Source: Nothopassalora personata
Taxonomy: Eukaryota; Ascomycota; Dothideomycetes; Mycosphaerellales; Mycosphaerellaceae
Assembly: GCA_033816765.1 (NCBI GenBank)
Contig: CM066291.1
Span: 2,356,001 to 2,420,000, forward strand
DNA length: 64,000 nt
Reading direction: 5' to 3'
Shown piece by piece: positions 5,327 through 57,509 of the stretch. Position 1 is the first letter of the stretch, and each line of letters starts with the position of its first letter. Under the pieces are notes generated by a model that was not told the origin of the DNA, made no database searches, and saw only the letters and a list, made by a program, of their open reading frames with translations. The position numbers and the translations under genes were made by a program.

Positions 5327-5328
5327 GC

Positions 5329-7529: not shown

Positions 7530-7531
7530 AC

Positions 7532-22559: not shown

Positions 22560-25500
22560 CGTTAGATCTCGAGGAGATACCGACTATACTCGGAGAGTAG
22601 AGGAGAGAGTTAGTAATAGAAGCACGACGCCTCTCCTAGACCCCTTAGAAGGACGAGGAGGGTACTATAGGTAGTAAATAGTAGTTATTCTATTTAATAC
22701 GAAGAACTAACTATAATAGTTTAATATAATAATACGAAGAGTTGACTACAAGATCGAATCCGAATCTTAAAATAGTTATAGAAGCCTTTATTAGCGATTC
22801 TATTACTAAGACTCGTATTAAGTTTACTACGCCGTAAAATTAGGCGTAGGGTATTAGCCTTAGTAACTAAGAGGAACCCTAGGAGCAATATATAGGTAAA
22901 GCGCTACGCTCCGAGAAGTAGACATCGACGAATCCTACTTTAACGATAATAGAAGCGATAAAGAAAACTAAGACCTAGGATAGAACGGATCGTAGTTACC
23001 GGAACTATAGGAAGAAAGTTAAGAAACTACCGGGCTAGATACTATCGAGGAAGATTAGGATCTAGAAGAATTAAGCGAAGAAGATTCCTCCGAAGGAGAA
23101 GAGAGCGACACTAACGATAATAATAAACAACTAACCTTTACGATTAATGTACCTAAGAAATTATATAACATAATCGTATACCTATAAAGAAGGTACGAAG
23201 AATTCTTACCTAAGATAGGCGGACGAAGAATGCTACACTCTATTAAGTTTAATAAGACACTTGACACCCTACGAGGCATAGCCTAGGGATACCTACTTAT
23301 AGAAACAACCGAGAATTTAGCAACTACTATTACTAAACGACCGCTAATAGGGAGCCGAATAATAGGAACCGGATACCTTATACCGTTAGGAACATTTATA
23401 TCAAATAAATTACGTAATGTAGTATAACACGTACGCGTACTCTACTTAGAAACGTAAAAGATCTAGGAACGTTACTAAATATAGGTACGGATATAGAAAG
23501 GCTCGCGCTAGGTTTAAGCGGAGGCCTCGAGATATAAAGAACGACGTTCTACGTACGAATAGGGAAAAGGATTAACTCCCTAGGAATAAGCGACCGAAGG
23601 GAGTTATACGACATAGAAAAGGCTTAAGCATTACTAAAGATAATAGTGTTTCGAACTAAGATTATCGTTAACGGGCATAAGATAGATACTATAATAGATT
23701 CTAGAGTAAGCGGGAACTTTACCTCCGAATTATTTATTATAAGATATAGGATCGCTACCTATAAGAAGAAAGAGGGTTATAAATTAATCGCGGTAGACGG
23801 ATTATCCTTACCTAGTATAGAGCGCGAGACGATACCGCTACTACTTACAATCTAACGGTACTATAAGGAGATTATCTTAGATATTACTAATATAGCTAGT
23901 TATAACATCGTACTAGGTATACCTTAGTTAAGAAAGCACAATCTAGTAATCGACTAGAGAAGAGGAGTACTTACATTTAGGGAATGCGATTACGTTATCG
24001 ACATTTAGCCTACGTAGTAGTAGCGTTTACTAGTAGATAAGGTAAGGAAACAGCTAAACAAGATATAGCTTACGCCGAACAGAAGGAATTAAGAACCACC
24101 TTCGACCGGGATAGACACTAGCGTAGGGCCGCCGGGTTACGAAGTTACTAGAAGTAATAGAAGTAACGCACTATCGAAGAATACTAACATCTTAGAGTTA
24201 AGTATTCCTAAGGAGTATCGCAAGTAGTCGCGGCTCTTTAAAGAGGAGAGAGGCAAAACCGCCTTACCTAAGTACCGCCTATAGGATTATAAGATTAACA
24301 TTTAGCTAGGGAAAGAGCCTCTATAGGGACCCCTATATTAAATGTCTAAGAAAGAGCTATAGACCCTACGAGAATAGCTAAAGGAGAAGCTAGCTAAAGG
24401 ATAGATAAGAAGATCTACCTTAAGCGTAGGAACTCTATATATGTTCGTTCTAAAAGTAAACGGGAAGTTACGACTTGTATAAGACTATAGGAAGTTAAAC
24501 GAGATTACGATTAAGAACCGATACCCGCTACCTAACATCGAAGAAGTATAAGATAGATTAGCCGGATTAGACTAGTATACGAAGATTAACCTACGAGATG
24601 CCTTCTACGCTATACGGATAGCGGAAGGAGAAGAATGGAAAACCGCTTTTAGAATAAGATACAGACTTTACGAATTCTTAGTTATACTAATAGGATTAAC
24701 TAACGTACCCGTATCCTATTGGGACCTTATTAGCGAGACACTTAGAGACCTACTCGATATATACGTTATCGCTTATATAGACGATGTAAGGGGCAGCCCA
24801 GTGGCTAACCCCTACATGTGGCCTTGCATGTGACATGCGGTCGCGACCGGCTGCCAAGCCGCACGTGACACGCATGAGTACACCTTGCGACGCGCGATGC
24901 GTCTTGAACAAAAGGCAAGAATTAGTTCATCTACGACTGGCAGGTCGTGGGCGTGCTATACATTGCGACATCCCCTTAACAGACGATATATTAGTCTATA
25001 CGAAAGGATCCCTTTAGAATTATATAAAACAAGTCTAGGACGTATTCGAACGACTTACGCGTTTAGGATTTAAGATAGTACCCGAGAAATGCGAATTCTA
25101 TAAGAAAGAAGTTAAATTCCTAGGTTTTATTATTAGTACTATAGGGATAATAATCGACCCTATAAAGATATAGTTAATTAGAGAATAGCTAGAACTAAAA
25201 ACAGTTAAGGACGTATAATTATTCCTTAGACTAGCAAACTACAACTAGAAATTCATTAAGGACTACGTAAAGACAGTAGTACTAATAACAATACTTACGA
25301 GAAAAGACGTTACCTAGAAATAGGGAAAGGAACAGATTAAAGCGTTTAAGAAACTTAAGGAACAATACGTTTTAGCCCCTACGCTTTAACTATTCGATAG
25401 TAGTAAGGAAGTCTATATCGAGACCGATACGTCTAATATAGTAATAGGCGCGTGTCTAATATAGATATACGATAGATAGAGACACCTAGTAGCCTATTAC

Positions 25501-27180
25501 TTCCGGAAAATAACTATAGCGGAATAGAACTACGACATCTATAATAAAGAGCTTCTAGCTATTATTGCTACTACGTAATATTAGAGAGTATATATCGAGG
25601 GCCTACCGAAGTTAACGATTCTTTCTAACTATAAGAATCTTACGTACTTTACGACGACGAAAGAACTTACCCGAAGGTAAGCCCGCTAGTTAGAGCTACT
25701 AGGATAGTATAAGTTCGAAATTAAATATACTCTAGGACGAGAGAACGGCCGCGTAGACGCGCTAAGCCGAAGAAGCAACTATATAGAAGGAAAAGAACTA
25801 GTATAATATAAAGTACTAAAGACGAACCCCGACGGAAGTCTTAGTACTAATATAAGAGAATTTAACAATATCGTACGGATATTAGGCGATAAGGACAAAC
25901 AATTCTCTATATCGTAAGGAAAGTACTAAGTACCGAAGGATAAAGAAGAAGAATATATACAATAATATTACGACGGACTAACCTACGGACACCCTAGAAC
26001 TTTAAAGATAATAGACCTAATCTAACGTAGCTTCTTATTTCTATATATAAGACAAAAGGTGCTACGTTATATTAAGCAATACGTACACTACTAACGAAAT
26101 AAGGCTATAAAACACGCAAAGTATAGTTACCTATAGTTTAGGACACTACTAATAAAACCATAGGACGAAGTTATAATAGACTTTATTACGAAACTCCTAC
26201 CGTTAAGGGACTAAGTTACAAAACAACTATACGACATAATACTAGTTATAGTTAATAGACTTACAAAATACGTACACTTTATTCCTATATTAGAGACATA
26301 TAATGTAGAGTAGCTCGGATACCTCGTACTAGATAGACTTATCCGATACCACGGATTCCCTTAAGCGTTTATAACGGATAGAGACAAGCTATTTACATTA
26401 AATTATTAGAAAACGCTTATAGGAACTATCGGAATTAAACATAAGCTATTAATAGTATATTATCTAGAAATAGACGGATAGACCGAGAGAATAAATTAGA
26501 CACTAGAACAATATATAAGACACTACGTTAACTACGTATAAGACAACTAGGTTTTATTACTACTAATAGCGTAGATTATACTAAATAACTATAAATTAGA
26601 GACAACTTTAACGATACTATTCTACGCGAACTTTAGTAAAGACCCTAACCTATTCGGAACACCTAGATCCTACCTATAAGCCGAAAGAGCAATTGTAACG
26701 ACGGATACTCTTAAGGAAGTATATAAAGAAATACGTAAGGCGATCGAAGATATATAATATAAACTATCTTAATAATAGTAAGACACGAGAAAAATAGCAC
26801 CTCTACTAAAAGAGGGGGATAAGGTCTATCTCCTTATAAAAAACTTAAGAATAAGAAGATAGACTAAGAAACTAGATTATATTAAGGTCGAACTATTTTC
26901 TATCGATAAAGCTATAGGACTAGTTAACTACCGCCTACGACTACTACCTAACGCTAAAATCTACCTAGTCTTCTATATCTCTAAGTTAGAACCCGCGGAC
27001 GCTAATACACCTTACTAAGAAAGCTTCTATTTCGAGCTAGAAGTAGAAAACGAATTCGAAGTTAAAAAAATCCTAGATAAAAAAGGTTAGCGATACCTTA
27101 TTAAGTAGAAAGAATACGACGAATTAGAAAATACCTAGGAACTAAAATAACATCTACGAAACTATTAGTAAAAGATTCGA
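22560..27180 (+). pseudogene. RIPped gag-pol of chromovirus A
   Basis: The Gag remainder runs to about 23600. Retropepsin at about 23640-24010 has D-S-(R/G)-V-S-G-N-F and NIVLGIPWL; its first part (23646-23855) is still open. RT at about 24360-25140 has DYRKLNEITIKNRYPLP and the Y-I-D-D codons, the latter split by a solo LTR at 24785-24981. RNase H is about 25380-25770. Integrase is about 25950-26700, with Asp in IDFITK and in FITDRDKLF. The chromodomain (VKKILDKKG...YLIKWKEYDELENTW) is at about 27055-27170. All stops are TAG/TAA replacing Trp or Gln. Confidence 0.85.
24785..24981 (-). repeat. Solo LTR of the E family inside the RT YIDD codons
   Basis: 197 bp, TGTAAGGGG to CCTTAACA, with GACGA duplicated at 24780-24784 and 24982-24986. 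It is nearly the reverse complement of the E2 3' LTR (51026-51222). CA/TG content is normal, so it arrived after A had been RIPped or was too short to be RIPped. Short open frames inside it are not genes. Confidence 0.93.
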
Positions 27181-27240
27181 TAATACTAAAAATAGGTCCG
27201 CCGATACGACCTACGATAATAGATCTCTCGGCCGACGAGC

Positions 27241-27313
27241 GACTAGGGTAGGAATCGAACCTACGACCTTAAGAGTTTAGATAGCTTACGCTATACTACT
27301 AAGCTACCTAGCC
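27241..27313 (-). tRNA. tRNA-like sequence in chromovirus A (probably non-functional)
   Basis: 73 nt on the minus strand, antisense to pol. The 7-bp acceptor stem GGCTAGG/CCTAGTC closes with one wobble pair. The T-arm GTAGG-TTCGATT-CCTAC is perfect, and the D-arm GCTT...AGC is weakened. Pol III A-box-like TAGCTTAGTAGTA and B box GGTTCGATTCC are present. The anticodon arm does not form a proper 5-bp stem, so no anticodon is assigned. Same sequence in C (35540-35612) and a diverged one in B (50732-50804). Confidence 0.5.
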
Positions 27314-27337
27314 GATCGATATAAATAGGGATATAAC

Positions 27338-27826
27338 TTATAAATAAATACCCTAATAAGTTTCTACCTCTAAGGACTCGCCCTAGGGCTCCGCCCTAGA
27401 AAGCGCCGCCTAGTCGTTTACGGGCATCTCTAGGATATCCGAGAAAGAAACTAGCGGAGGCGATACCTCTACTCCCGACGCCTACTTAAGAGACGCTAGT
27501 TCCTCGTACGTCTCTTCCTCCTCGAGCTCCTCTAACTCCTTAGCGACGACGTCGTTAGTACGACGCTTAGCTAAGCGTAGCTATTTCCGAAGACGGACCT
27601 TACGTATCTTTAGCCGTACCTCCTCCTCTTTAATCCTCTTAAGCTCTAGCTTAAGCTTATCGCGCGAATCGCGAAGACATTCCTACTCCGGACGAGAAAG
27701 ATATACGTCGTAATCCTTATAGCCTTTTCGAATATAGGCCGAATACTTCCTAGACCGAGAACCTACGATATATTTTACTACCGCGCCCGAGGATCGAGAC
27801 TTCTAATAATTTGTATATAGAGCTAT
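27338..27826 (-). pseudogene. Antisense coiled-coil ORF of chromovirus A
   Basis: Minus-strand frame of about 162 codons between the 3' LTR and the tRNA-like sequence, opposite to pol. Interruptions are all TAG. The putative start is ATA (RIPped ATG). The encoded protein has a basic N-terminus, a central Leu/Lys/Glu/Arg-rich helix likely to coil, an acidic Glu run and a Ser/Pro-rich C-terminus. It matches C 35027-35515 at a constant offset with no indels. Not recognised. The opposite (sense) frame is also free of non-RIP stops but is mere Ser-rich sequence. Confidence 0.5.
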
Positions 27827-27964
27827 TTTAATACTAGAGATTTTAGTATCTAGAGTAAGTCGTTAACGGCGTTTATAGAAGGAAGAAGATATAGTTAACT
27901 ATTACTATAAGAAATAATAACGGCTTATAAAGCTTCGGGACGAAGCTAGGCTAAAAAGGGATAG

Positions 27965-28324
27965 TATTACGGAATAATTCCTATAGACCCTAGAATTATA
28001 ATAACGAAACGAGCACGTAACTTATCCTACCTAAGCGCTTAGACTTAGGGCAATTAGACTGCTTATACTTAGACTAATTAGACTACTTATACTTAGAATA
28101 ATTAGACTAATTACCGAGATCTACGAATCTTCTTTATATTTAGGAACGCTAAGAATCCCTTATAGTTTCGATACTTTTAACTTATGTTACTATCTTACTA
28201 ATTAGAATACACTCTTATCCTAATTATTTATCTTCGCTTAGCTCGCTTTAGCCTCTCTAAAGAATACCGCTACGTAACTTAGCTTATCTCTCTTTTAAGA
28301 CTAGCCCTAGAACGAGACATAACA
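27965..28324 (+). repeat. 3' LTR of chromovirus A
   Basis: 360 bp, TATTACGG (from TGTTACGG) to GACATAACA. Its last 250 bp match the B-type LTRs. The central part holds a different tandem motif (ATTAGACTNCTTATACTTAG-like units, about 28050-28110). Tail-to-tail with the C LTR at 34485-34888. Confidence 0.85.
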
Positions 28325-34484: not shown

Positions 34485-34888
34485 TGTTAGGTTTAGTATA
34501 ACCTAATAATATTACAAGTTAAGAAGATAAGCTTAATTGGGGTTGTTCTCGGGCCGATAGGAAGTCGAGGGAAAGTAATAAAGTAGTAGCTATCTTGTCT
34601 TATAAAGACTAAGTAGCAGTAAGGTAGAGGTTAGGTTATAGTATAGTCTAAATAGTAATATTAAATAGTAAGCTAAACATATTAAAACTATAAGGGGTTC
34701 TTAGCGTTCCTAAATATAAAGGAGATTCGTAGATCTCGGTAATTAGTCTAATTATTCTAAGTATAAGCAGTCTAATTAGTCTAAGCGTAAGCAGTCTAAT
34801 CGCCCTAAGTCTAAGCGCTTAGGTAGGATAAGTTACGTGCTCGTTTCGTTATTATAATTCTAGGGTCTATAGGAATTATTCCGTAATA
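34485..34888 (-). repeat. 3' LTR of chromovirus C
   Basis: 404 bp, TGTTAGG to CCGTAATA (from CCGTAACA). The half nearest the element body matches the A LTR including its tandem motif; the outer roughly 180 bp are unlike A or B, so this is a recombinant or different LTR subtype. Confidence 0.7.
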
Positions 34889-35026
34889 CTATCCCTTTTT
34901 AGCCTAGCTTCGTCCCGAAGCTTTATAAGCCGTTATTATTTCTTATAGTAATAGTTAACTATATCTTCTTCCTTCTATAAACGCCGTTAACGACTTACTC
35001 TAGATACTAAAATCTCTAGTATTAAA

Positions 35027-35515
35027 ATAGCTCTATATACAAATTATTAGAAGTCTCGATCCTCGGGCGCGGTAGTAAAATATATCGTAGGTTCTCGGTC
35101 TAGGAAGTATTCGGCCTATATTCGAAAAGGCTATAAGGATTACGACGTATATCTTTCTCGTCCGGAGTAGGAATGTCTTCGCGATTCGCGCGATAAGCTT
35201 AAGCTAGAGCTTAAGAGGATTAAAGAGGAGGAGGTACGGCTAAAGATACGTAAGGTCCGTCTTCGGAAATAGCTACGCTTAGCTAAGCGTCGTACTAACG
35301 ACGTCGTCGCTAAGGAGTTAGAGGAGCTCGAGGAGGAAGAGACGTACGAGGAACTAGCGTCTCTTAAGTAGGCGTCGGGAGTAGAGGTATCGCCTCCGCT
35401 AGTTTCTTTCTCGGATATCCTAGAGATGCCCGTAAACGACTAGGCGGCGCTTTCTAGGGCGGAGCCCTAGGGCGAGTCCTTAGAGGTAGAAACTTATTAG
35501 GGTATTTATTTATAA
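35027..35515 (+). pseudogene. Antisense coiled-coil ORF of chromovirus C
   Basis: Counterpart of A 27338-27826 on the strand opposite to C pol. About 162 codons with seven in-frame TAG and no TGA; start ATA from ATG. The central part is rich in Leu, Lys, Arg and Glu in a coiled-coil-like pattern, followed by ELEELEEEE-type acidic sequence. No intron is evident. Lies between LTR and tRNA-like sequence in the same orientation as the latter. Function unknown. Confidence 0.5.
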
Positions 35516-35539
35516 GTTATATCCCTATTTATATCGATC

Positions 35540-35612
35540 GGCTAGGTAGCTTAGTAGTATAGCGTAAGCTATCTAAACTCTTAAGGTCGTAGGTTCGATT
35601 CCTACCCTAGTC
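35540..35612 (+). tRNA. tRNA-like sequence in chromovirus C
   Basis: Identical to A 27241-27313. Acceptor stem, T-arm and B box are sound. The D-loop lacks the usual GG (possibly TGG changed to TAG), and the anticodon arm does not fold normally. Starts 25 bp after the antisense ORF ends. Confidence 0.5.
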
Positions 35613-35689
35613 GCTCGTCGGCCGAGAGATCTATTATCGTAGGTCGTATCGGCGGACCTATTTTTAGTATTATCGAATCTTTTACTAAT

Positions 35690-38600
35690 AGTTTCGTAGA
35701 TGTTATTTTAGTTCCTAGGTATTTTCTAATTCGTCGTATTCTTTCTACTTAATAAGGTATCGCTAACCTTTTTTATCTAGGATTTTTTTAACTTCGAATT
35801 CGTTTTCTACTTCTAGCTCGAAATAGAAGCTTTCTTAGTAAGGTGTATTAGCGTCCGCGGGTTCTAACTTAGAGATATAGAAGACTAGGTAGATTTTAGC
35901 GTTAGGTAGTAGTCGTAGGCGGTAGTTAACTAGTCCTATAGCTTTATCGATAGAAAATAGTTCGACCTTAATATAATCTAGTTTCTTAGTCTATCTTCTT
36001 ATTCTTAAGTTTTTTATAAGGAGATAGACCTTATCCCCCTCTTTTAGTAGAGGTGCTATTTTTCTCGTGTCTTACTATTATTAAGATAGTTTATATTATA
36101 TATCTTCGATCGCCTTACGTATTTCTTTATATACTTCCTTAAGAGTATCCGTCGTTACAATTGCTCTTTCGGCTTATAGGTAGGATCTAGGTGTTCCGAA
36201 TAGGTTAGGGTCTTTACTAAAGTTCGCGTAGAATAGTATCGTTAAAGTTGTCTCTAATTTATAGTTATTTAGTATAATCTACGCTATTAGTAGTAATAAA
36301 ACCTAGTTGTCTTATACGTAGTTAACGTAGTGTCTTATATATTGTTCTAGTGTCTAATTTATTCTCTCGGTCTATCCGTCTATTTCTAGATAATATACTA
36401 TTAATAGCTTATGTTTAATTCCGATAGTTCCTATAAGCGTTTTCTAATAATTTAATGTAAATAGCTTGTCTCTATCCGTTATAAACGCTTAAGGGAATCC
36501 GTGGTATCGGATAAGTCTATCTAGTACGAGGTATCCGAGCTACTCTACATTATATGTCTCTAATATAGGAATAAAGTGTACGTATTTTGTAAGTCTATTA
36601 ACTATAACTAGTATTATGTCGTATAGTTGTTTTGTAACTTAGTCCCTTAACGGTAGGAGTTTCGTAATAAAGTCTATTATAACTTCGTCCTATGGTTTTA
36701 TTAGTAGTGTCCTAAACTATAGGTAACTATACTTTGCGTGTTTTATAGCCTTATTTCGTTAGTAGTGTACGTATTGCTTAATATAACGTAGCACCTTTTG
36801 TCTTATATATAGAAATAAGAAGCTACGTTAGATTAGGTCTATTATCTTTAAAGTTCTAGGGTGTCCGTAGGTTAGTCCGTCGTAATATTATTGTATATAT
36901 TCTTCTTCTTTATCCTTCGGTACTTAGTACTTTCCTTACGATATAGAGAATTGTTTGTCCTTATCGCCTAATATCCGTACGATATTGTTAAATTCTCTTA
37001 TATTAGTACTAAGACTTCCGTCGGGGTTCGTCTTTAGTACTTTATATTATACTAGTTCTTTTCCTTCTATATAGTTGCTTCTTCGGCTTAGCGCGTCTAC
37101 GCGGCCGTTCTCTCGTCCTAGAGTATATTTAATTTCGAACTTATACTATCCTAGTAGCTCTAACTAGCGGGCTTACCTTCGGGTAAGTTCTTTCGTCGTC
37201 GTAAAGTACGTAAGATTCTTATAGTTAGAAAGAATCGTTAACTTCGGTAGGCCCTCGATATATACTCTCTAATATTACGTAGTAGCAATAATAGCTAGAA
37301 GCTCTTTATTATAGATGTCGTAGTTCTATTCCGCTATAGTTATTTTCCGGAAGTAATAGGCTACTAGGTGTCTCTATCTATCGTATATCTATATTAGACA
37401 CGCGCCTATTACTATATTAGACGTATCGGTCTCGATATAGACTTCCTTACTACTATCGAATAGTTAAAGCGTAGGGGCTAAAACGTATTGTTCCTTAAGT
37501 TTCTTAAACGCTTTAATCGATTCCTTTCCCTATTTCTAGGTAACGTCTTTTCTCGTAAGTATTGTTATTAGTACTACTATCTTTACGTAGTCCTTAATAA
37601 ATTTCCGGTTATAGTTCGCTAGTGTAAGGAATAATTATACGTCCTTAACTATTTTTAGTTCTAGCTATTCTCTAATTAACTATGTTTTCGTAGGGTCGAT
37701 CGTTATCCCTATAGTGCTAATAATAAAGCCTAAGAATTTAACTTCTTTCTTATAGAATTTGCATTTCTCGGGTACTGTCTTAAATTCTAAACGCGTAAGT
37801 CGCTCGAATACGTCTTAGACTTGTTTTATATAATTCTAAAGGGATTCTTTCGTATAGACTAATATGTCGTCTATATAAGCGATAACGTATATATCGAGTA
37901 GGTCTCTAAGTGTCTCGTTAACAAGGTCCTAATAGGATGCGGGTGCGTTAGTTAATCCTATTAGCATAACTAAGAATTCGTAGAGTCCGTATCTTGTTCT
38001 AAAAGCGGTTTTCTATTCTTCTCCTTCTACTATTCGTATAGTATAGAAGGCATCTCGTAGGTTAATCTTCGTATACTAGTCTAATCCGGCTAATCTATCT
38101 TATGCTTCTTCGATGTTAGGTAGCGGGTATTAGTTCTTAATCGTAATCTTGTTTAACTTCCTATAGTCTTATACGAGTCGTAACTTCCCGTTTACTTTTA
38201 GAACGAACATATATAGAGTTCCTACGCTTAAGGTAGATCTTCTTATCTATCCTTTAGCTAGCTTCTCCTTTAGCTATTCTCGTAGGGTCTATAGCTCTTT
38301 CTTAGACATTTAATATAGGAGTCCCTATGGAGGCTCTTTCCCTAGCTAAATGTTTATCTTATAATCCTATAGTTAGTACTTAGGTAAGGTATCCTTACCT
38401 CTTTCCTCTTTAAAGAGTCGCGACTACTTACGATACTCCTTAGGAATACTTGATTGATTATTCCATTAACGTGCTATTTGAGTCAAAGACTATGCAACAC
38501 GGGTCTCGAGAACGAGACCAAAATTTGAGAGAAGGAGAAAAGCCCCGTCGTACCCCGGACGTAAAAACTCCTTAAAAGATGCGAGCAACGCTCGCTATTC

Positions 38601-40148: not shown

Positions 40149-40346
40149 TATAAGGGCTATAAGGCTATAAGGGGATGTCGTAATATATAGTACGCCTACG
40201 ATCTTCTAATCGTAGATAAACTAAAGCTTACCTTCTTCTATTAACGCTATACGCGTCTCCTAGTATACGTATACGCGTTACGTACGGTATACTAAGCCGG
40301 GCATAGCCGTATTACATATAAGGATTAGCTATAGGCTACCCTTATA
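40149..40346 (-). repeat. 3' LTR of E1
   Basis: About 198 bp, TATAAGGG (from TGTAAGGG) to CCCTTATA (from CCCTTACA). Related to the LTRs at 51026-51222 and 24785-24981 but with its own middle part. Contains CTAAAGCTT (40221-40229), as does 57498-57506. Confidence 0.75.
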
Positions 40347-40760
40347 ACTGCCTCCCCTTCTAGGACGAGCTACCCTTAGCTCGCGGCTTTAGGAGGTTTC
40401 TATATAAGTAATCTATCTACTTCTCGTAGATTCCGTTACTATACGACCTACCTACGGGTCTCGTACGTGTTGTTATTGTAGTATAGGTAGGTATAAAGTT
40501 ATAGTTACCGGGTTAACTAACTCGAGGGTTTAAGAAGCGTACCCTCTCCCTCCTTTTCCTTCTTTTCCCTTATACTACGTTCTCGTAGCGTACTATACCC
40601 GCACTACTAGCGATCTACTAGCTCCTCGCTAGCGACTATCTAGCGACCCGCTAGCACTACTATAGCTTTAGAGGAAGCTATCTAAGACTAGCTCCGCTAG
40701 GAGGCCCTTATAGGGGGCCTATTAGTACTACTAACACTATTACTAGTACTACTAGTATAG

Positions 40761-41633
40761 ATGTCTAGCGCGCTCGGCGTACTAGATACGCTAGCGAAGC
40801 GTAAGTTTAGCGTACTAGGGCCGTAGACCCCTAAGTCCTTACTAGCTAGGCGCCTAGGTATAGACATTAAGATATATATACATTATCTACCGTACTTCGT
40901 AGCTAGTAAGTATTCGCTACGCTCTTCGCTTACGATACGCTTACTAATAGTATAGTAGACGAGTAGGATACGTATAATAGGAATTACTACCGGCGAGTTA
41001 CTTAAGAAGTGTAGGCGCTATAGAGACATTAGGCACCCCTACGTTAGTAATAATAGCGTCGCTATCGCGTAGCTAGTAGCTCGCCTACGCGCCGCTCGCG
41101 CCTAGCGCGATAAGCTTATCTAGGGGCTTAGTAACCCTATTACTAAATAAGAGTAGGATACTCTAGACTAGTAGTACGAGGTCTACGCCTAGCTAGGCGA
41201 GTAGATCTTAGAGGTAAGTACTACGCCTCGCTAGCGCTCCCTACGCTCGCCGTATGCGGCGTACTATCGCTCCCTATATAAATCGGCTAACCTCCTCCTA
41301 GGCTAAGAGGTAGTTTAGTACCTATAAGAATAAGCATATAGGCGACACCCGCGTACGCTTCGCCGGTACCTCTACTACTACTACCCCCTCCTCCGCCGCC
41401 GCTACTACGTCTATAGTTCTATAGTAAGAGTAGAATAGGGCCCTTAATAGGCTCTTCGAGCTCGGCTGTGCGGTAAGTAACATACGTGTCGTATACGTGT
41501 CCTATACTAACCGTAGTTATAGTTCCTATAGGCTAGAAACATTAATACTACTACGGCTAATAGGGCCTTCTTACTACTAGCCCTACGGGGCGAGTATAAT
41601 AAGGAGGATAATAAGGATAATAATAACGAGTAA
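40761..41633 (+). pseudogene. Antisense spliced gene of E1 (CX2CX6C protein)
   Basis: Lies between the 3' LTR and pol, on the strand opposite to pol. Exons 40761-41213, 41314-41472 and 41532-41633 (453, 159 and 102 nt, all multiples of three) join to 237 codons plus TAA, broken only by TAG/TAA of RIP type. Intron 1 (100 bp): GTAAGT, branch GCTAAC, acceptor TAG. Intron 2 (59 bp): GTAAGT, TACTAAC, TAG. The protein has GELLKKC followed by a Cys pattern CX2CX6C in which two Cys codons read TAT/TAC (Cys to Tyr by RIP); E2 retains one of them. A Thr/Ser/Ala/Pro run and an NRALNRLFELG helix follow. The pattern resembles half of a fungal Zn(II)2Cys6 cluster. Function unknown. Confidence 0.75.
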
Positions 41634-42040
41634 TCGCGCGCTCTACGTATATTAGCCGCCTACTACGCGCCTGTCCTTTATCTACGTAGCGCCGTAGCGC
41701 GCCTATAAGAGTTTATTTTTAAAATAAATACTCTTCTCTCTACTATTCTCTCTCCTTACCTCCCTCTCTAATGTTATTACTATCGGGGGTGTTTACTTAA
41801 CTAAGTAAGCGAGCCTTTTAGTCCAATAGAATATACTATAGGTTAGTGTCTTATATATAGGTTATAGCTAATTTTGCTATCGGGGGTAGAGGCTACCGTT
41901 AATGTATATACTATCGGATAGACCTCCCCCCCGTATTGTTAGTAAAAAGAGGAGGTTATGTCTAAAGGGTAAGGTCCTTATATCTAGCTACCGAAGGGTT
42001 AAGGCCTAAATGTATAACCTATGCCCTTATTTTAGCGCCT
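41634..42040. other. E1 spacer between the two convergent genes
   Basis: RIPped DNA between the end of the antisense gene and the C-terminal end of pol, which converge on it. No further frame seen. Confidence 0.45.
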
Positions 42041-42049
42041 TACACGGCC

Positions 42050-44870
42050 TTCGTAGGTACCTCCTATTCGACTACTATACGCGTAGCCTTCGCGGATCCT
42101 TCCGCCGGCTTATACCGTCTTCGCTAACGTCTTATATTCGGCTACTATACGCGTAGCATTCGCGAGTCCTTATACTAGCTCCTAGCTATTATACTCTTCT
42201 AGCTAGCCCTTCTATCGCACTAGGTACTACAATTTACCCTTATACTTACGCTTTCCTAGTACTACCTCTACTTTATATTCCCCGTCCTTATTAGCGAGGG
42301 CTATAGTGCCTCTATCCTTCTCGCTACCCGCGTACGGCTCGAGGAGGGATATATAGAATACATTATAAATTCTTAAGTCGGCTAGTAGTACTAGGCGGTA
42401 CGCCTACGAACCGATAGCGTCGATAATACGGTACGGTCTAATAAACTTCGGACCTATCTTCTTCTTCGGTAATACTAACCTTAGGTTCTTCGTAGATAAT
42501 AAGACTATGTCGCCTACGCGATAGCTCTTATCCTTATAAGTCTTATTATAGTAGCGAGTCTAATCGGCTACTACGATTTCCTAACGCTTCGTAAGCGTAG
42601 CGCGCATCTCTCGTATACGGTTAACTAAGTCTACCGCTACTAGTACCTCCCCTTCCCGGATCTCGCCTCGAGATCCTACAGGTGTTAGGGCAATCTTAGG
42701 TCTCTAACTATACGCTATCTCGAATAGGCTTATACGTAGCGTAGGGTAGACGCTATTATTACATACGAATTTAGCAATAGCTAGCTACTTAGCCTACTCT
42801 ATCTAGTTCTCGCTATAGTAATAACGAAGGTACTATTCTAAGGTTTAGTTTACCCTCTTAGTCTAACCGTTAGTCTAAGGGTAGAAAGCTATAGATAGCT
42901 TACGCTTTACCTACGCCTCGAAGTAGAAGTTACTTTAGAACTTACTCGTGAACACTAACCCGCGGTTACTTACTATGCCCGCTAGTATACTATAATGCCG
43001 TACGACTTTATCTTGTAAGATCCTCGTAAGCTCCGCCGCTATATATGTCTTAGTCGTAGGAATATATAAGTTTATTTTAGAGTAGCGGTCGACGATTACT
43101 AGGATCGCATTATATACGCATTCTCCTCGCTTACTTAGCGGTAGGTCCGTAATGAAATCTATAGTAATTTCTTACTATAGACCGTCTAGCCTAGGTAGTA
43201 GCTATAGCTCGCCGTAGGGTCGATAGCGCCTCACCTTCGAGGTCTAATAAGCCCTATAGTTTCTAATATACTCCCTTACATCCTTACTAAGTAATTCCTA
43301 CTAGTAATAACGTCGTAGTAGCTCTTTAGTCTTTACCTTACTAAAGTGCCCTACTAGTAGGTCGTTATAATGCATGTAGAGTAGCTATGCTCTTACTATA
43401 TAGTCTTCGGGTACTATAATCGCGTTCCCGCGATAGACTAACCCGTCTTTTATATACTAGTCCTTAGCGTCCCCTTCGCTAGGCGCCTACGATAAGTATA
43501 CGACGTACCTATCGTCTCTCCCCTACACGATTTTTATTAGTAGTGTAAGTAGTTTACCTAGGCCGCCCTACATTATTATAGCGTATACTCTTACTAGTAG
43601 CGATCGGGTCCCCTACGGCTCGTAGGCTCCTACTACTATTATCGTTACCTTATCCTATATCTTCTCGTAGGTAGCGGTTACGCGCCTTACTATAGGCTCG
43701 TCCTCTCTTAATAGGGATTCCTTCTAGAAAGATAGCTTACTTTATAGCGTAGGAAGTAAGTTCGACGTCTACTACGCTACGCGTACGTAGTTACTACGTC
43801 GCGATAGCGCATCGGCTAGGTTACTCTTCCCCGACCTATACTCTACTACGAAGTCGAAAGATTATAGAAACGTCGCCTATCGAGCTTACCTCCCGTTTAG
43901 CTACTTTACTATTATAAAACCCTATAGGTTCGTATAGTCGACTAGTACCTAAACCGTATACGATACGCCTTCGAGGTACGGTCGCTAATACTTAAATACC
44001 TCTACTACTACTAGTAGCTCTTAGTTATAGGTCTTATAATTATACTCGGTAGGTATTATCTTACGAGAATAGAAAGCAATTAGATGCTACTTAGTCCTAA
44101 ATAGCTAAGAGATAATGCCTATAATCGTAAAACCTAAGGCATCCGTTTTAACCCTCGTACGTAACGAAGGATCGAAGTGCCTTAGGATAGGTGCTCCGAG
44201 GAACCCGGCTTTTAGCCGTTAGAACGCTTACTCCTCGTAAGCGGACTATATAAGAGGCCCCTACTTCTTACCGTTCTTACATCCCTTTAGTAGGTCTATT
44301 AATAGCTTCGTAATCCTCGAGTACCCTTCGATAAAGCGCCTATAGAAGTTATAGAATCCTAGGAAGGATTAAACCTTATAAAAACTCGTAGGCGTAGGCT
44401 ATTCCTCGATTACGGCTACCCTACTCCTATCTATCGATACGCCTACGACACTTACGATAAATCCTAGGAACTTTGCATTCTCCTAGAAGAAGCTATACTT
44501 CTTTAGGTTTATAAATAGGGCGAACTTTCGTAGCCTCTCTAGCACCGCGCGTACGGCTCGTACGTACTCCTTACGCGTTACGCTATAGATAAGGATGTTA
44601 TCTAGGTAGACTACGTAGATGTTATCTACTAACCTAGTAAGAGCCTTATTAATATACCCCTAAAAGGTAGCTAGTACGTTAGTTAACCTAAAAGGCATAA
44701 CTAAGTACTCGTAGTAACTATATCGCGTGCGAAACGTAGTCTTCTACTCGTCTCCTCGCTTAATAGGAATACGGTAGTAGGCATCCTATAGGTCGATTAT
44801 AGTAAAGAGCCTAGCGCCCTATAGCCTATCTAAGGTCTTACTAATTAGGGGTAGTAGGTACCGGTTCTTT
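42050..44870 (-). pseudogene. RIPped pol of E1 (chromodomain to RT), truncated
   Basis: Minus strand: chromodomain-like VEVVLGKRK...YLVRWKG-LEEYNSWE at about 42300-42170, then integrase (about 43500-42600), RNase H (about 44100-43800) and RT to 44870. The RT C-terminal region, with the VDD-type motif, lies near 44640. It ends abruptly at the B LTR, at the point equal to E2 55378 (between the KNRYPLP motif and its upstream block). RIP-type stops throughout. Confidence 0.75.
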
Positions 44871-45285
44871 TATTACGGTTCGGATTGAGCTACGACGGCA
44901 CGCCTAGCTATTAGCTATAGAGATTACGTGCGCCGCACGAGATTACTCGCTCACTAGCGACTCGGTAATTCGAAATTACTCGCTCACTAGCGACTCGGTA
45001 ATTCGAGATTACTCGCTCACTAGCGACTTAGTAATTTAAGATCACTCGCTCACTAGCGATTAAGTAATTAAGACTAAGACTAGTAATGTCTCCTTTGTAT
45101 TTAGGAACGCTAAGAACCCTTATGGTTTCGATGCGTTCAACTTATGTTACTATCTTACTAATTGGAATATAACTCTTATTCCTATCATTTATCTTCGCTT
45201 AGCTTACTTTAGCCTCTCTAAAAAATACCGCTACGTGACTTAACTTATCTCTCCTTTAAGACTAGCCCTAGAACGAGACATAACA
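44871..45285 (+). repeat. 5' LTR of chromovirus B
   Basis: 415 bp, TATTACGG (from TGTTACGG) to GACATAACA. Carries four 33-bp tandem units (44941-45072). Flanked by CTTT on both sides. Same family as the solo LTR 18228-18609, in the opposite orientation. Confidence 0.88.
44941..45072 (+). repeat. 33-bp minisatellite in the B LTR (four units)
   Basis: Unit begins GATTACTCGCTCACTAGCGA; four head-to-tail copies, the last two degraded by RIP-type changes. The solo LTR at 18228-18609 has three units. Confidence 0.92.
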
Positions 45286-50660: not shown

Positions 50661-50731
50661 AAAGGCTCTAGGAGTATAAAAAACGGTCTAGTAGACTAAC
50701 CCCCGCGCTAGAGACTAATCTACTAGAAAGT

Positions 50732-50804
50732 AGCTAGAGTAGGAATTGAACCTACGACCTTAAGAGTATAGACAGCTCGCGCTCTACTACTAAGCTACCT
50801 AGCT
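50732..50804 (-). tRNA. tRNA-like sequence in chromovirus B
   Basis: 73 nt on the minus strand. Acceptor AGCTAGG/TCTAGCT pairs, D-arm GCTT-AGTAGTA-GAGC is better preserved than in A and C, and T-arm GTAGG-TTCAATT-CCTAC is perfect. The anticodon region still does not form a normal stem. Differs from A/C at several positions but keeps all paired arms. Confidence 0.5.
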
Positions 50805-51025: not shown

Positions 51026-51222
51026 TGTTAAGGGGATGTCGCAATGTATAGCACGCCCACGACCTACTAGTCGTAGATAAACTAATTCTTGCCTTTTATT
51101 CAAGACGCATCGCGCGTCGCAAGGTGTACTCATGCGTGTCACGTGCGGCTTAGTAGCCGGTCGCGACCGCATGTTACATACAAGGCTACATGTAGGGGTT
51201 AGCTACTAGGCTGCCCCTTATA
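51026..51222 (-). repeat. 3' LTR of E2
   Basis: 197 bp, TGTTAAGGGG to CCCCTTATA (from CCCCTTACA). Near-identical family member to the solo LTR 24785-24981 in reverse orientation, with additional C-to-T/G-to-A changes. Confidence 0.88.
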
Positions 51223-51523
51223 ATTGCCTCCCCTCCCGTACGAGCTGTCCTTAGCTCGCTAGTTACTACGTAGAGGCTCCTATATACTTCTAGAACTATA
51301 GTTACTATACGGCCCACATGCGGGTTACGTACGTGTCGTTATGTAGGTATAGGTAAGTGAGGCTTGGTTACTATGCCGACGTAGCTAGTTAGGGGCATAA
51401 AACTCTAGCCTAACCTAGTCCTTTCTTAGCACGCTCCCTAGCTCATTACCTTCGCTACACTACCACTACGCACCCGCACCGCACTATTATCGTAAGCGCC
51501 TCGCTAGTATTATTATTATTATT

Positions 51524-52461
51524 ATGTCTACCGTGCCCTCCTCGCCGCTATTCTCTAGCCGCTCCGCCTCCTCTAGTAGTACTAGTAGCGACAGTACTAC
51601 TAGCGCCGTAGAAGACGAGCGCCGCTAGGCGGCTCTAGTGCGCGACGCCCCTAGAACGCCTAGTAGTCGCAAGCGACTAGCATTACCCTCGTAGCTACTA
51701 ACGCCCTCGCTAGCTACTAAGCTCTCGTAGAGAATTAACATGTACATACGGTGCCTCCCGTACTTCGTTAGGGGTAAGTCTCTACGCGTGTCGCCTACGA
51801 TTCGTATGCTAACCACTTACTAGACGAGGCCGATAACTGTAATAGTATTACTACCGGCGAGCTCCTAAAGAAGTGTAGCCGCTGTAGGCGTAGTAAACAT
51901 AGCTACGTGCCTAATACTAGCTACGCTATCGCCTCGCTAGTAAGCCGCCTACGCGCCGCGCGGTCCTAGCGCGACTTCCTTACGGCTATAATAGGCTAGG
52001 CGCCTACAGACCTCTAGTAGTAGGAGCTAGTAGAGCAGATCCGCCTATGTACCTAGCTAGGTAACGACATTAAGGAGGTAAGTCGCTACTTCGCTCGTAC
52101 GAGTCGACTACTACTCGCGGGGGAGGGCTCTAGTACGTCCCCTATGCTTCGGCTAACCCTTCCTATAGGCTATTAGGCAGTTTAATGCCTATAAGTATAA
52201 GCGTGCCGGGGAGACCCGTATACGTGCCTCCGCCGCCGCTACTACTACTACCGCCGCCCCCGCCGCCGAAGCCCTCGCGCTCTAGTAGGAGTAAAACCGC
52301 GCCCTTAATAGGCTGTTCGAACTCGGCCGCGCCGTAAGTCGTATATTCCTCGCCTACGTATACCCTACTAACCGTAGTCCCAGTTCCTATAGGCGTAGAA
52401 CATCGATACTACCGCTACCGACTAGGCATTCTTACCTAAGTTACTACGTGACGACAACTAA
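51524..52461 (+). pseudogene. Antisense spliced gene of E2 (CX2CX6C protein)
   Basis: Homologue of 40761-41633. Exons 51524-52077, 52181-52333 and 52393-52461; introns 52078-52180 (GTAAGT, GCTAAC, CAG) and 52334-52392 (GTAAGT, TACTAAC, TAG; 59 bp as in E1). Exon 1 is one base short of a multiple of three; alignment with E1 places the loss near 51830, just before the TTGELLKKC block. Restoring phase would give about 258 residues. First Cys at 51874, second at 51883, third codon (51904) TAC. The N-terminus is Ser/Thr-rich, longer than in E1. Conserved blocks are LPYFV, PTIR, GELLKKC and NRALNRLFELG. Antisense to pol and converging with it. Confidence 0.75.
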
Positions 52462-52639
52462 GGCGCTCGCCTTACACGCTACTCGCGGGCTCCTCGCCTA
52501 CTACTACTCTACGTAGCCCCTAGTAGGCGCGCTACTCCTTAGCTTTTGTTTTATTTATAGTTAAGAAAAGTTTTGTTTATACTCTAGTGCTAGTCTTATT
52601 TGCTTCTCCTTAACGCCTTATAGTCGGCTACTATGCGAT

Positions 52640-55600
52640 CCGCATTCGCGAGGCCCTCCGCCGGTTCCTAGCTATTATACTCCTCTAGCTAGTCCTTCCA
52701 CTAGACTAGATACTGTAGCTTACCCTTACGCTTACGCCTATCTAGCACTACCTCTACCTTATACTCTCCGTCCTTATTAGCTAGAGGGGGTACGGGTCCA
52801 TCCTTATCGCTACCGATATACGGCTCGAGGAGAGAGACATAGAAGACGTTATAGAGCCTTAAGTCGGCTAGTAGCGCTAGGCGGTACGCCTACGAACCAA
52901 CAGCGTCCGTAATGCGGTATAGGCCGATAAACTTCGGACCTATCTTCTTCTTTAGCACTACTAACTTAAGGTTCTTCGTTAATAACAGGACTAAGTTACC
53001 TACGCGGTAGGTTTTAGCTTAGTAGGTCTTGTTATAGTAGCGAGCCTAGCTTTCTACTATAGCCTTCTATTGCTCCTCGAGTGTAGCGCGTAGTTTTCGC
53101 ATACGACTCGTAGCTATTACCGCTACTAGTACTTCCCCCCCCTAGGTCTCGTCTCGAGATCTAGTTAGTGTAGGGGTAATCTTAGGTCGCTAACCGTACG
53201 CTATTTCGAACGGACTTATCCGTAGTGTTAGGTAGATACTGTTATTAGCTACGAATTTAGTAACTGTAAGCTACTTAGCCTACTTAGTTTAATTGTCACT
53301 ATAGTAATAACGAAGGTATTGTTCGAGGGTTTAGTTTACCCTCTTAGTTTAGCCGTTAGTCTAAGGGTGAAAGGCCGTGGATAGCTTACGCTTTACACGC
53401 GCCTCGAAGTAGAAGTTACTCTAAAACTAACTAGTGAAGACCGGACCTCGGTCGCTTACTATACCTAACGGGACACTATAGTGTCGCACGACTTCGTCTC
53501 GTAGGAGCCTCGTAAGCTCTACGGCTATGCAAGTCTTCGTTATCGGGATGTATAAGCTCATTTTTAAGTAGCGATCGACTATTACTAGGATCGCATTATA
53601 CACGCAACCGGCTCGCGTACTTAGAGGTAGGTCCGTAATAAAATCTATAGTAATTTCCTACTACGGTCGCTCCGGTCTAGGAAGCGGTTATAGCTCGCCG
53701 TAGGGTCGATGGCGCCTCGCCTTCGAACCCTAGTAGGTTCTATAGGCTTAGACGTATTGTTTTACGTCCGTACTAAGTGAGTCCTACTAATAATTACGTC
53801 GTAACAGCTCTTTAGTCTTAGTCCTTCTAAAGTGACCCGCGAGGACGTCGTCGTAGTATATGCGAATTAGATACGACCTGATTGCGTAATCCCTAGGTAC
53901 TACGATCGCGTCTCCGTAGTACATAAGGTTATCCTTTATATGCTATCCCTTAGCGTCCCTCGCGCTTAGCGCCTACGCTAAGTATGCGACATACTAGTCG
54001 TCTTACTACTACGCGATCTTTATTAAGAGTGGGATTAACTTACCCGTCGAGCTATAAGCTTAACCCTATATTACTATAGCGTACACTACTACTAGTAAAG
54101 ACGGCTTGTCTTAATAGGGAAGGTCACCTCTCCGCACTACTATCGCCGCGCCTATGTCGCCCTATATTGCCTCGTAGGTAGTAAGTACGCGCTTTACCGT
54201 CGGCTCGCTTGTCCCTTCTAGAGACTCCTTCTAGAAAGATAGCTTACTTTATAAGGTAGGCAGCAAGTTCGAAGTTTGTTACGTTATAGCTACGTAGTTA
54301 CTACGTCTCGAAGGCGCGTCGGCTAGGTTAGTCTTACCCGGCCGATGCTCTACTATAAAATTAAAAGACTATAGGAACGTAGCCTATCGAGCTTACCGCC
54401 TATTTAGCTACTTTACTATTATAAAGCCCTATAGGTTAGCGTAGTCGACTAGCACTCGCACCGTATGCGTAGCGCCCTCTAAGTATAGCCTCTAATACTT
54501 AAAAGCCTTAACTACTGTAAGTAGCTCCTAATCGTGCGTCTCGTAGTTACACTTAGCTAGTATTATCTTACGTAAATAGAACGCGATAGGATGCTACTTA
54601 GTACTAAACAATTAGGATATATCACCTACGATCGCGAAACCTAAGGCATCCGTCTCGACTCGCGTGCGTAGCGTAGGATCGAAGTGCCTAAGTATTAGTG
54701 CACCTAAGAATCCGGCCTTAAGCTATCGAAACGCCTACTCTTCGCTTAAGGTCTACGTAAGAGGGCCGTGCTTCTTACCGTCCTTAGATCCCTTTAGTAG
54801 GTCCGTTAGGGGCTTATAGACCCTTAAGTATCCTTCTATAAAACGCCGGTAGAAGTTATAAAACCTAAGGAAGGACTAGACCTTATAAAAGGTCGTAGGT
54901 GTAGGCCATTCCTCGATAGCGGCTACCCTGCTCCTATCTATCGACACGCCTACGGCGCTTACGATAAACCTAAGGAACTCTATACTCTCCTAGAAGAAGT
55001 AACACTTCTTAGGGTTTACGAATAGGGCAAACTTTCGTAGCCTCTCTAGCACCGCGCGTACGGCTCGTACGTGTGCCTTACGCGTCTCGCTATAGATGAG
55101 GATATCATCTAGGTAGACTACGTAAATGTCATTAACTAAGCCGGTTAGCGCCTTGTTAATATACCCTTAAAAGGTTGCCGGTACGTTAGTTAACCCGAAC
55201 GGCATTACTAGGTACTCGTAGTGTCCGTATCGCGTACGAAACGTAGTCTTCCACTTATCGCCTCGCTTAATAGGGATACGATAGTAGGCGTCCTTCAAAT
55301 CGATTGTAGTAAAGAACCTAGAACCTAATAGCCTATCTAGCGTCTCGCTAATTAGGGGCAGGGGGTATCGGTTCTTTACTATAATCTCATTTAGGCCTCT
55401 ATAATTAACATAGAGCCTAAGAGTGCCATTCTTCTTTAGCACGAATAGGATAGGCGCACCCGCCTCGCTTACGGACTGCCTAATCTACCCCTTCTCTATT
55501 GCTTACGTAAGGTACTCCTTTAAGGCCTCTAACTTAGTTAAGGACTAGTGGTATAGCGGCTTAAATGGGGGTTTCTTTCCTTTAACGAGATCAATCGCAT

Positions 55601-57400
55601 ACTCAACCCCGTCGGGCATCTTACGCTTCGCCTACTCATTAGGTACGTATACATCTCGGAAGTCTACAAATTCTTTAGGCTACGAGGGGCCCTCTCCTTT
55701 AGGTACTACTATAGTAATAGCCCGAACACTTATCGTTTAAACCTACTTTAAGCTCTCGAGATCCTTAAGGAACTCGCGTACGTTACGCTACTAAACCGTA
55801 GGCGTCTCTATACCGTAGTACTACTAGTTATCCTTATCGGCCTTTACTATCCGATTATAATGCCGCTAGGGTCTACCTAAAATTACTAATAGCCTACCTA
55901 TAGGTACCGCGTAGTAGATGGCGTTACTTACGCGCTCTACTCCCGCGTTATTAGCGAGTCGTAGCCGAACCGTAAAGGCGCCGTAGTAATACCCTAGGTT
56001 ATGCGCATACGACTCTAACTTCGGTAGCCTTACCCTATTAATGGGTTGCATTTAATGTCGGAGTACATACTTATACGACACTAGGCTAAGATCCGTATAG
56101 TTATCTAGGAGAAACGTAGCCTCGCGAAAGCCCTTACGAGTCTCGACTACGCCTCGTAAGTAACGCGCTAGACACGCATCTACTCGCCTTAAGGGGTCGA
56201 CTTTAGGAAAACTCGGACTTAGGAGCGACCCACTTATAGTCCTCTACCTTTTCCCTATTCGCCCTTCTTAGTTAAAGGCTCGATAGTTTCTAACCTACGA
56301 ACCGCTTACGCGTCGCGGTCTTTCTATAGGTGCCTATTCCGGCACTTCGTCTTATAGTAACCCTTCCTACCGTAGCCGTAGTACTCTACTTTCGACTTCT
56401 AGCTAGTTAAAGACGAGCTACCGGCGTCTCGCTACTAACTCACACCCGAGGCGCCCGGTACTTAACTCTACTTCTATTACTTTAGGCGATCGGCCCGCTT
56501 ATGTACGCCCTTAGCTTTACACTTACGACGTACATACTACCCGCGGTCGTGCCCTCCGCTACTACCTCGGCGCTCGGTACTTTCGATACGCGAGGCTAGG
56601 ACTACTAGGTCTTCTCTAGTCGTAGGGATATTATAGTAGCTAACGATAGCGGGCCGTAAGCGAGGCGTAAGCTTCGCTAGTAGGTGCCGTATACGTTACG
56701 CTTCTAAGTAGTTACCTAACTAGTCCTCTATAATATCTAGCTTAGTCGCGAACTATCGCGCTATCTAGTTATCCTTCTATCTCGTAACCTCGTACTCTAA
56801 CATAACGTTAAGTACGCGATTTATAGGATCGCCGTATACGTCTCGGTAGAACTCCTTAAAGTCCTAGTATATATACCCTATAAGGTTAACGGCGCTATAG
56901 TTAGTATACTATCGCTCGCTTACCTCTCCGCTAAGGTACATAACCCTATATAGGACCTTTAATTCGTCTATTACGTATATAGTACCTAAGAGGGCGAAGA
57001 TAAGTAAGAGCTCCTAAAGGAATACCCTTACCTTCCTTATCGAATCCCCTCTAAAAGGCGTCGGCTCTTTTAGACGCGGTCGCGTCGTATGCGCTATAGC
57101 CGCGCCTCGTACTATAATATTATCGTTAGTAGTTATAGAGATAGAGGTAGGGGTTATAGTAGGGAGGTAATCTTCTCTCCTCCCTCCTATACGCTCTAGA
57201 GGCGGTACGCTTATAGCGCGTAAGATCTCTAGCCGCTCGATCTCCTGCTATATCTCTTACTCTTTAATCTTAGCCCGTAAGGCCTCTCTTCTCGTAACTA
57301 AGGCTATACGACGCGCCTACTACTATACTCTAGGGCTTAGGGGCGGCGTAGGCGACTCGCCGTTATATACGTCGCGATCGGGCTCTATAGCGTATATAGA
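52640..57400 (-). pseudogene. RIPped gag-pol of E2
   Basis: Minus strand. Chromodomain at about 52790-52660 (LQYLVWWKDWLEEYNSWEP), integrase about 54000-53000, RNase H about 54650-54250. RT lies about 55450-54900; 55167-55442 is still open and shows [33 protein letters not shown] and LVMPFGL. Protease is about 56200-55830, with ILGRPW and a 61-codon open piece at 55866-56051. A Cys-rich knuckle region follows near 56340, then Gag to about 57400. Stops of RIP type. Confidence 0.8.
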
Positions 57401-57413
57401 TTATAACGAAGGG

Positions 57414-57422
57414 AAGCTTTAG
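57414..57422 (-). other. Self-priming-type primer site of E
   Basis: CTAAAGCTT on the minus strand, 3 nt after the LTR end, complementary over 9 nt to AAGCTTTAG within the adjoining LTR (57498-57506) and the E1 LTR (40221-40229), but not to the E2 3' LTR. Same geometry as in the intact element. Confidence 0.55.
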
Positions 57423-57425
57423 AAC

Positions 57426-57509
57426 TATAAGGGCCGTAAGGCTATAAGGAGATATCGTAATGTATAGCACGCCTACGATCTTCTAATCGTAGATAAACTA
57501 AAGCTTACC
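57426..57509 (-). repeat. Truncated 5' LTR of the E composite
   Basis: 84 bp matching the first 80 or so bases of 40149-40346, then cut where C gag resumes (57510). Confidence 0.8.

What the first reader, a model, noticed from the sequence alone, without database searches (positions are those of the whole stretch)
40761..41633. Spliced antisense gene inside a chromovirus, with introns conserved in two copies
E1 and E2 both carry, between pol and the 3' LTR on the opposite strand, a gene whose exons fall in phase only when two introns are removed. Intron 2 is 59 bp in both copies, with GTAAGT, TACTAAC and TAG. Intron 1 is 100 and 103 bp, with GTAAGT, GCTAAC and AG. E1 exons are 453/159/102 nt, all multiples of three, and interruptions are only RIP-type TAG/TAA. 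Conserved signals in divergent copies argue for a real mRNA made from the antisense strand. The product has CX2CX6C, like half a Zn(II)2Cys6 cluster. It could be a regulator, a silencing suppressor or a captured host gene.
Basis: partly seen in the sequence, partly recalled or inferred. Interest (0 to 1): 0.88.

Follow-up and report, generated by a model that had tools for sequence, protein, structure and literature searches.

The report
Spliced antisense gene in fungal retrotransposon
A family of dead, heavily mutated fungal retrotransposons carries, on the strand opposite its own genes, a small protein gene with three introns that was kept under selection and may have made a cysteine-rich regulatory protein.

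Summary
The core observation holds, but the gene model needs correction. Two chromovirus families in this fungal genome (E1, E2) carry a protein-coding gene between pol and the 3' LTR on the antisense strand. It has FOUR exons and THREE introns, not three and two. The three introns recur at the same sites in 30 fetched copies of each family. Transversion-only pN/pS between families, which RIP cannot create, is 0.54 in the model frame and lowest of six frames in each exon. Correct splicing joins two parts of a Cys module whose positions hold Cys or Tyr, the RIP partner. CX2CX6C itself occurs in 1 of 28 E2 and 0 of 27 E1 copies and in neither window copy. All 60 fetched copies have stops. Closest known: antisense gene brtn of Botrytis Boty elements. 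No homologue was found. Most likely an accessory regulator of the element; function inferred, not shown.

The parts
40149..40349 (-). E1 3' LTR (element sense is the - strand)
   Evidence: Matches both LTRs of a full E1 copy, L070 218-429 / 6480-6692
40761..40905 (+). E1 antisense gene, exon 1 (145 nt; ATG at 40761; true N-terminus uncertain)
   Evidence: tv pN/pS 0.53 in this frame, lowest of six, with one sense frame close at 0.59 (first 36 nt left out)
40906..40958 (+).
   Evidence: GTAAGT 28/30, GTGAGT 2/30; TACTAAT/C 17 nt from the end 30/30; TAG 30/30
40959..41213 (+). E1 exon 2 (255 nt here, 254 in the other copies; private 1-nt insertion near 40980)
   Evidence: tv pN/pS 0.69 in the frame of the other copies
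41214..41313 (+). E1 intron B (100 nt)
   Evidence: GTAAGT 30/30; RGCTAAC 30/30; YAG 30/30
41314..41472 (+). E1 exon 3 (159 nt)
   Evidence: tv pN/pS 0.39
41473..41531 (+). E1 intron C (59 nt)
   Evidence: GTAAGT 24/30 (ATAAGT 6); TRCTAAC 30/30; TAG 29/30
41532..41633 (+). E1 exon 4 and stop
   Evidence: tv pN/pS 0.24 over its first 60 nt
42125..44870 (-). E1 pol, 3' part
   Evidence: 76% identical to E2 pol; pol sense frame tv pN/pS 0.21
51028..51223 (-). E2 3' LTR (196 nt)
   Evidence: Matches L069 195-390 / 6693-6888
51524..51773 (+). E2 exon 1 (250 nt), Ser-rich N-terminus and first part of the Cys module
51774..51823 (+). E2 intron A (50 nt)
   Evidence: GTAAGT 30/30; TRCTAAC 17 nt from the end 30/30; TAG 30/30
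51824..52077 (+). E2 exon 2 (254 nt), second part of the Cys module
52078..52180 (+). E2 intron B (103 nt)
   Evidence: GTAAGT 30/30; GGCTAAC/T 30/30; YAG 29/30
52181..52333 (+). E2 exon 3 (153 nt)
   Evidence: One in-frame 6-nt difference from E1
52334..52392 (+). E2 intron C (59 nt)
   Evidence: GTAAGT 24/30 (GTGAGT 6); TACTAAC 29/30; TAG 30/30
52393..52461 (+). E2 exon 4 (end approximate)
52611..55377 (-). E2 pol: RT, integrase, Tf2-type SH3 and chromodomain
   Evidence: Pfam RVT_1 4e-34, Integrase_H2C2 1.7e-8, SH3_Tf2-1 3.8e-10, Chromo 1.8e-10; rve below its cut-off

Best explanation
This is an accessory gene of a fungal chromovirus. It was transcribed antisense from a start in or near the 3' LTR, spliced of three introns and translated into a basic protein of about 220-240 residues with a Cys module that probably bound zinc. 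The likeliest role is a nuclear regulator of the element's own expression, as proposed for other antisense accessory genes. The introns survive transposition because the genomic (sense) RNA carries them in reverse complement, where the spliceosome cannot see them. RIP later broke every copy fetched here. Shown: position, exon-intron structure, conservation of signals, selection on the antisense frame, copy number. Inferred: transcription, actual splicing, zinc binding, nuclear role. I put the spliced coding gene at about 0.85 and the regulator role at about 0.45; the figure below is for the statement as a whole.
For: Three introns at homologous sites with branch sites at matching distances from the acceptor (17/17, 29/30, 27/27 nt) in 30 copies of each family, with few broken signals. 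Exon 2 is 254 nt in both families; exon 3 differs by 6 nt. tv-only pN/pS 0.54 pooled, lowest of six frames in all four exons; 0.52-0.56 in four copy pairs with 95% intervals within 0.38-0.78, point values of the other frames 0.78-1.94. An LTR lies on the expected side in 27 of 30 E1 and 29 of 30 E2 copies (26 of the E2 at the usual distance), and pol within the fetched flank on the other side in 25 of 30 E1 and 30 of 30 E2. 300 genomic matches to an exon-3 motif, 0 for its reversed control. C/Y columns fall at one module in both families, plus one elsewhere. No processed copy: 0 matches to spliced junctions 1|2 and 3|4.
Against: No RNA data. No homologue in the 5.8-billion-protein set, Pfam, NCBIfam (68) or IMG/VR (67); PDB gave only two hits at E 0.64 and 3 (22). 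Weaker constraint than pol (0.54 against 0.21). The intervals of some sense frames (from 0.58 up) overlap that of the model frame, and in pol a frame that is not the gene gives 0.48, a shadow of the true frame at 0.21; so a ratio near 0.5 alone does not prove coding, though here no frame lies below the model frame. Stop density does not favour the frame. Introns of 50-59 nt also give 0.22 in one of six frames, so single short segments are weak evidence. The Cys spacing is not standard Zn2Cys6.
Confidence: 0.6

Rival explanations
1. Passenger: a host gene piece captured antisense by an ancestor of E1 and E2 and carried along without a use for the element.
For: Three spliceosomal introns look like a nuclear gene; no homology to any described accessory protein was found.
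Against: Selection on the antisense frame between E1 and E2 and the same place next to LTR and pol in both families are not expected of a passenger.
Confidence: 0.15
2. The antisense RNA, not the protein, is what matters (dsRNA or silencing control of the element).
For: Antisense transcripts are proposed to regulate retrotransposons through dsRNA (PMC7264820, passages).
Against: Does not explain codon-level constraint, the in-frame exon-3 indel between families or frame-keeping introns.
Confidence: 0.1
3. The conservation comes from a sense-strand frame or from DNA-level constraint.
For: The least interrupted frame in the exons is on the sense strand (9 of 216 and 10 of 236 codons are stops), and in exon 1 a sense frame is nearly as low as the model frame (0.59 against 0.53).
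Against: Pooled over exons, sense-strand frames give tv pN/pS 0.86-1.26 and 0.78-1.27 by copy pair; no intron-like pattern on that strand.
Confidence: 0.05
4. Chance open text in RIP-shaped, TAG-rich DNA.
Against: Three homologous introns in two families and frame-specific transversion constraint.
Confidence: 0.04

Closest known systems
brtn, antisense gene of Boty-like Ty3/gypsy elements of Botrytis cinerea (Zhao et al. 2011; that paper is not held; known here from sections or passages of PMC7264820, PMC8365987, PMC4227169, PMC5987419)
   Same: Antisense gene between pol and 3' LTR (PMC7264820) of a fungal element with a chromodomain (PMC4227169).
   Different: No BRTN sequence was available to compare; whether brtn has introns or a Cys module was not seen by me.
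Plant antisense accessory ORFs between pol and 3' LTR (Grande gene23, RIRE2, Retand, PvRetro13; PMC7264820, sections 3 and 5 and passages)
   Same: Position and orientation; gene23 has its own promoter and a nuclear product according to that review.
   Different: The word 'intron' does not occur in the review's main text; no Cys module is mentioned in the parts read.
HTLV-1 HBZ (start of abstract of PMC3112605 in a listing; antisense 3' LTR promoter in PMC7264820; bZIP nature and spliced main form partly recalled)
   Same: Antisense message from an LTR element, with a regulatory protein.
   Different: A retroviral bZIP protein; no homology claimed.
Fungal Zn(II)2Cys6 (Zn_clus) proteins
   Same: Six Cys/Tyr positions in two groups; the last three match C-x2-C-[basic]-x2-[basic]-x2-C in one E2 copy (L023). 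The signature is recalled.
   Different: First loop is longer; no Pfam hit.

Membership tests
[quoted passage not shown]
Antisense accessory ORF between pol and 3' LTR (aORF-3R) | Coding strand opposite to gag-pol | tested here: met
   Pol domains on the - strand, constraint on the + strand
Antisense accessory ORF between pol and 3' LTR (aORF-3R) | Present in most copies of a family | tested here: inconclusive
   All 60 fetched copies were found with the gene itself as query, so copies without it were not sampled
Antisense accessory ORF between pol and 3' LTR (aORF-3R) | Transcribed | not testable with these tools
   No RNA data
brtn of Boty | Sequence homology to BRTN | not testable with these tools
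   No BRTN sequence at hand; no hit of any kind
Chromovirus (host element) | Ty3/gypsy RT and integrase with C-terminal chromodomain | tested here: met
   E2 pieces; E1 only by its 76% identity to E2 pol
Zn(II)2Cys6 cluster | C-x2-C-x6-C-x(5,12)-C-x2-C-x(6,8)-C (recalled) | tested here: not met
   Columns with Cys are spaced C-x2-C-x11-C-x11-C-x2-C-x6-C, or [CY]-x2-Y-x8-C for the first group; no Pfam hit

The most novel reading that the evidence does not exclude
A fungal chromovirus lineage encodes a multi-intron antisense Cys-cluster protein that regulates the element or its silencing: a fungal counterpart of HBZ, and a natural version of the antisense-intron reporters used to detect retrotransposition, kept because only antisense introns survive the RNA stage.
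Probability: 0.35. Interest if true: 0.75.

Novelty: new variant of a known kind. Interest (0 to 1): 0.52.

Why it matters
Genes with introns are not expected inside elements that copy themselves through RNA, unless they lie antisense. A gene with three introns kept in two families suggests that antisense accessory genes can be full nuclear-style genes, gives a way to look for them (antisense intron pattern plus transversion-only constraint, which RIP cannot fake), and makes the open question of what these genes do testable in fungi with live copies.

Tried and rejected
Stop density as coding evidence: does not discriminate. Homologues: none in the protein set with a seven-row alignment (8000 candidates scored, none at E <= 0.01), a region query (23 candidates, none at E <= 10) or an alignment with Ser- and Ala-rich parts masked (3980 candidates, none at E <= 10); none in Pfam, NCBIfam or IMG/VR, nothing significant in the PDB. 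Processed copies: 0 matches for junctions 1|2 and 3|4; for 2|3, 158 matches at up to 2 mismatches, of which the 100 listed are all intron-bearing E2-type acceptors, so that test is inconclusive. The first orientation-blind alignment was wrong for copies on the other strand and was redone. Structure prediction not tried: it takes unspliced proteins of the window and no deep alignment exists. Shared stops: 7 columns of 14 and 14 (hypergeometric 1.7e-6), but DNA similarity alone would give part of this. Rows dropped: L039, L052, L058, L059 and L012, L014, L030 before the pN/pS count, which then used the first 6 of the 26 and 6 of the 27 left, with the start of E1 exon 1 and the end of exon 4 left out; one search used 4 pairs, and one pair (window copies) for pol; the Cys counts dropped L039, L052, L059 and L012, L014. 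The loop limits of the shuffle test were widened after seeing the data.

Full report
What is there. The window lies in a 54.5-Mb genome with strong RIP signs (TA/AT 3.3-4.0 in the 30 fetched E2 copies; the E1 values were cut from view), taken here to be an ascomycete. Two related LTR elements, E1 and E2, run on the minus strand. A full E2 copy elsewhere (L069) spans 195-6888 with 196-nt LTRs that differ by 12 transitions and no transversion; a full E1 copy (L070) spans 218-6692 with LTRs of about 213 nt differing by 13 transitions and 2 transversions. Pieces of E2 pol match RT, integrase zinc-binding, SH3_Tf2-1 and chromodomain models, so E2 is a chromovirus; E1 pol is 76% identical to it. In the window, E1 covers 40149-44870 and its 5' part appears to be about 56263-57509, with about 11 kb of other repeats and a 5'-truncated E2 (51028-56262) between them.

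The gene. Between pol and 3' LTR, on the plus strand, both families have a gene of four exons. E1: 40761-40905, 40959-41213, 41314-41472, 41532-41633. E2: 51524-51773, 51824-52077, 52181-52333, 52393 to about 52461. The first intron was missed because the window's E1 copy has one extra base near 40980, which happens to put the unspliced text back in frame; 29 of 29 other fetched E1 copies lack it. In those copies, and in E2, the frame moves by one base across a 53- or 50-nt stretch that starts GTAAGT (GTGAGT in 2 of 30 E1 copies), has TACTAAY or TGCTAAC 17 nt from its end, and ends TAG. Protein-level matches between E1 and E2 break at this place. Exon 1-3 lengths are 145/254/159 in 26 of 30 E1 copies and 250/254/153 in 27 of 30 E2 copies.

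Is it more than chance? The donor-branch-acceptor pattern is found three times in each gene region on the coding strand and not on the other; simulated gene regions reach three in 14 and 8 of 2000 runs. Over the whole E1 and E2 parts it occurs 3 and 4 times on the + strand and never on the - strand, and 68 and 59 of 2000 simulations reach three. RIP makes only transitions, so transversions between E1 and E2 record older divergence. Counted by codon, they are synonymous-biased in the model frame of every exon (ratios 0.53, 0.69, 0.39, 0.24). Pooled, four copy pairs give 0.52-0.56 with 95% intervals within 0.38-0.78; the five other frames have point values of 0.78-1.94, some with intervals reaching down to 0.58. 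On pol the same measure gives 0.21 in its own frame and 0.48 in one frame of the other strand, a shadow of the first (one pair). So a value near 0.5 alone is not proof; what counts is that no frame of the gene region lies below the model frame, in all four exons. The protein was under selection, but looser than pol. Against: stop density does not pick this frame, and short introns give noisy ratios. The E1 N-terminus is uncertain: E2 has about 35 more residues before the shared part, largely Ser-rich, and the first 36 nt of E1 exon 1 were left out of the ratio.

Copies. 40 or more matches of each family were reported, the tool scoring only the best 40, and an exon-3 motif has 300 matches in the genome, 0 for the reversed control. 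All 60 fetched copies have stops in the gene. The fetched copies are the best matches to RIPped queries, so whether better-preserved copies exist was not tested.

Product. About 220-240 residues, more K+R than D+E (35 against 22-23). With intron A removed, columns that show Cys in at least one copy and otherwise Tyr fall at E2 residues 74, 77, 89, 101, 104, 111 and also 159, and at the matching E1 residues 39, 42, 54 and 66 (66 is Arg in one copy); E1 residues 69 and 76, matching 104 and 111, are Tyr in all 27 copies counted. Cys and Tyr codons are one RIP-type transition apart. A six-position pattern of Cys or Tyr at Zn2Cys6-like spacing (77, 80, 89, 101, 104, 111) is reached by 0-3 of 20000 shuffles in the four copies tried, but I widened the loop limits after seeing the data, and residue 80 is Tyr in all 28 E2 copies counted. 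The literal CX2CX6C is in 1 of 28 E2 copies and 0 of 27 E1 copies. I call it a Cys module, probably zinc-binding, not a Zn2Cys6 member.

How it likely worked. The coding strand starts beside the 3' LTR, so a promoter in or next to it is likely (inferred). The element copies its sense RNA, in which these introns are reverse-complemented and invisible to splicing, so they are kept; no processed copy was found for two of three junctions, as expected. A basic, Cys-rich accessory protein suggests nucleic-acid binding and control of the element, as proposed for other antisense accessory genes (PMC7264820, sections 3 and 5 and passages).

Known or new. Antisense genes at this place are known in plants and in Boty of Botrytis (brtn). 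The review of such genes does not use the word intron in its main text and calls for a look at spliced antisense transcripts. The rows listed by literature searches (several of them capped lists) show no fungal antisense accessory gene with introns by title or abstract start, but the 2011 brtn paper is not held and may describe splicing. Hence: a new variant of a known kind, with membership in the brtn family untested.

Noticed in passing
416-7715: A young chromovirus on the minus strand with open genes: LTRs 416-599 and 7532-7715 identical (184 of 184), 1600-aa pol with chromodomain, 677-aa ORF before it. Its pol stop lies inside the 3' LTR, so there is no room for an antisense gene between them.
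   Followed up: partly
27239-27313, 35540-35614, 50730-50804: Three copies of one RIPped repeat each carry a tRNA-like gene, above Rfam's tRNA cut-off; ARAGORN reads the anticodons as cta, cta and gtc, perhaps altered by RIP.
   Followed up: partly
51353-51429: A further GTAAGT-branch-AG pattern upstream of the E2 start codon, not found in E1: possible 5' UTR intron.
   Followed up: no
24970-28213 and 34640-37883: A 3.2-kb inverted repeat pair, 98% complementary, closer than the other long inverted pairs here.
   Followed up: no
44938-45069: Tandem 33-nt repeats just beyond the E1 pol fragment, in a block shared with 18226-18607.
   Followed up: no
57426-57509: An E1-type LTR cut to 84 nt at its junction with another repeat family.
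   Followed up: partly
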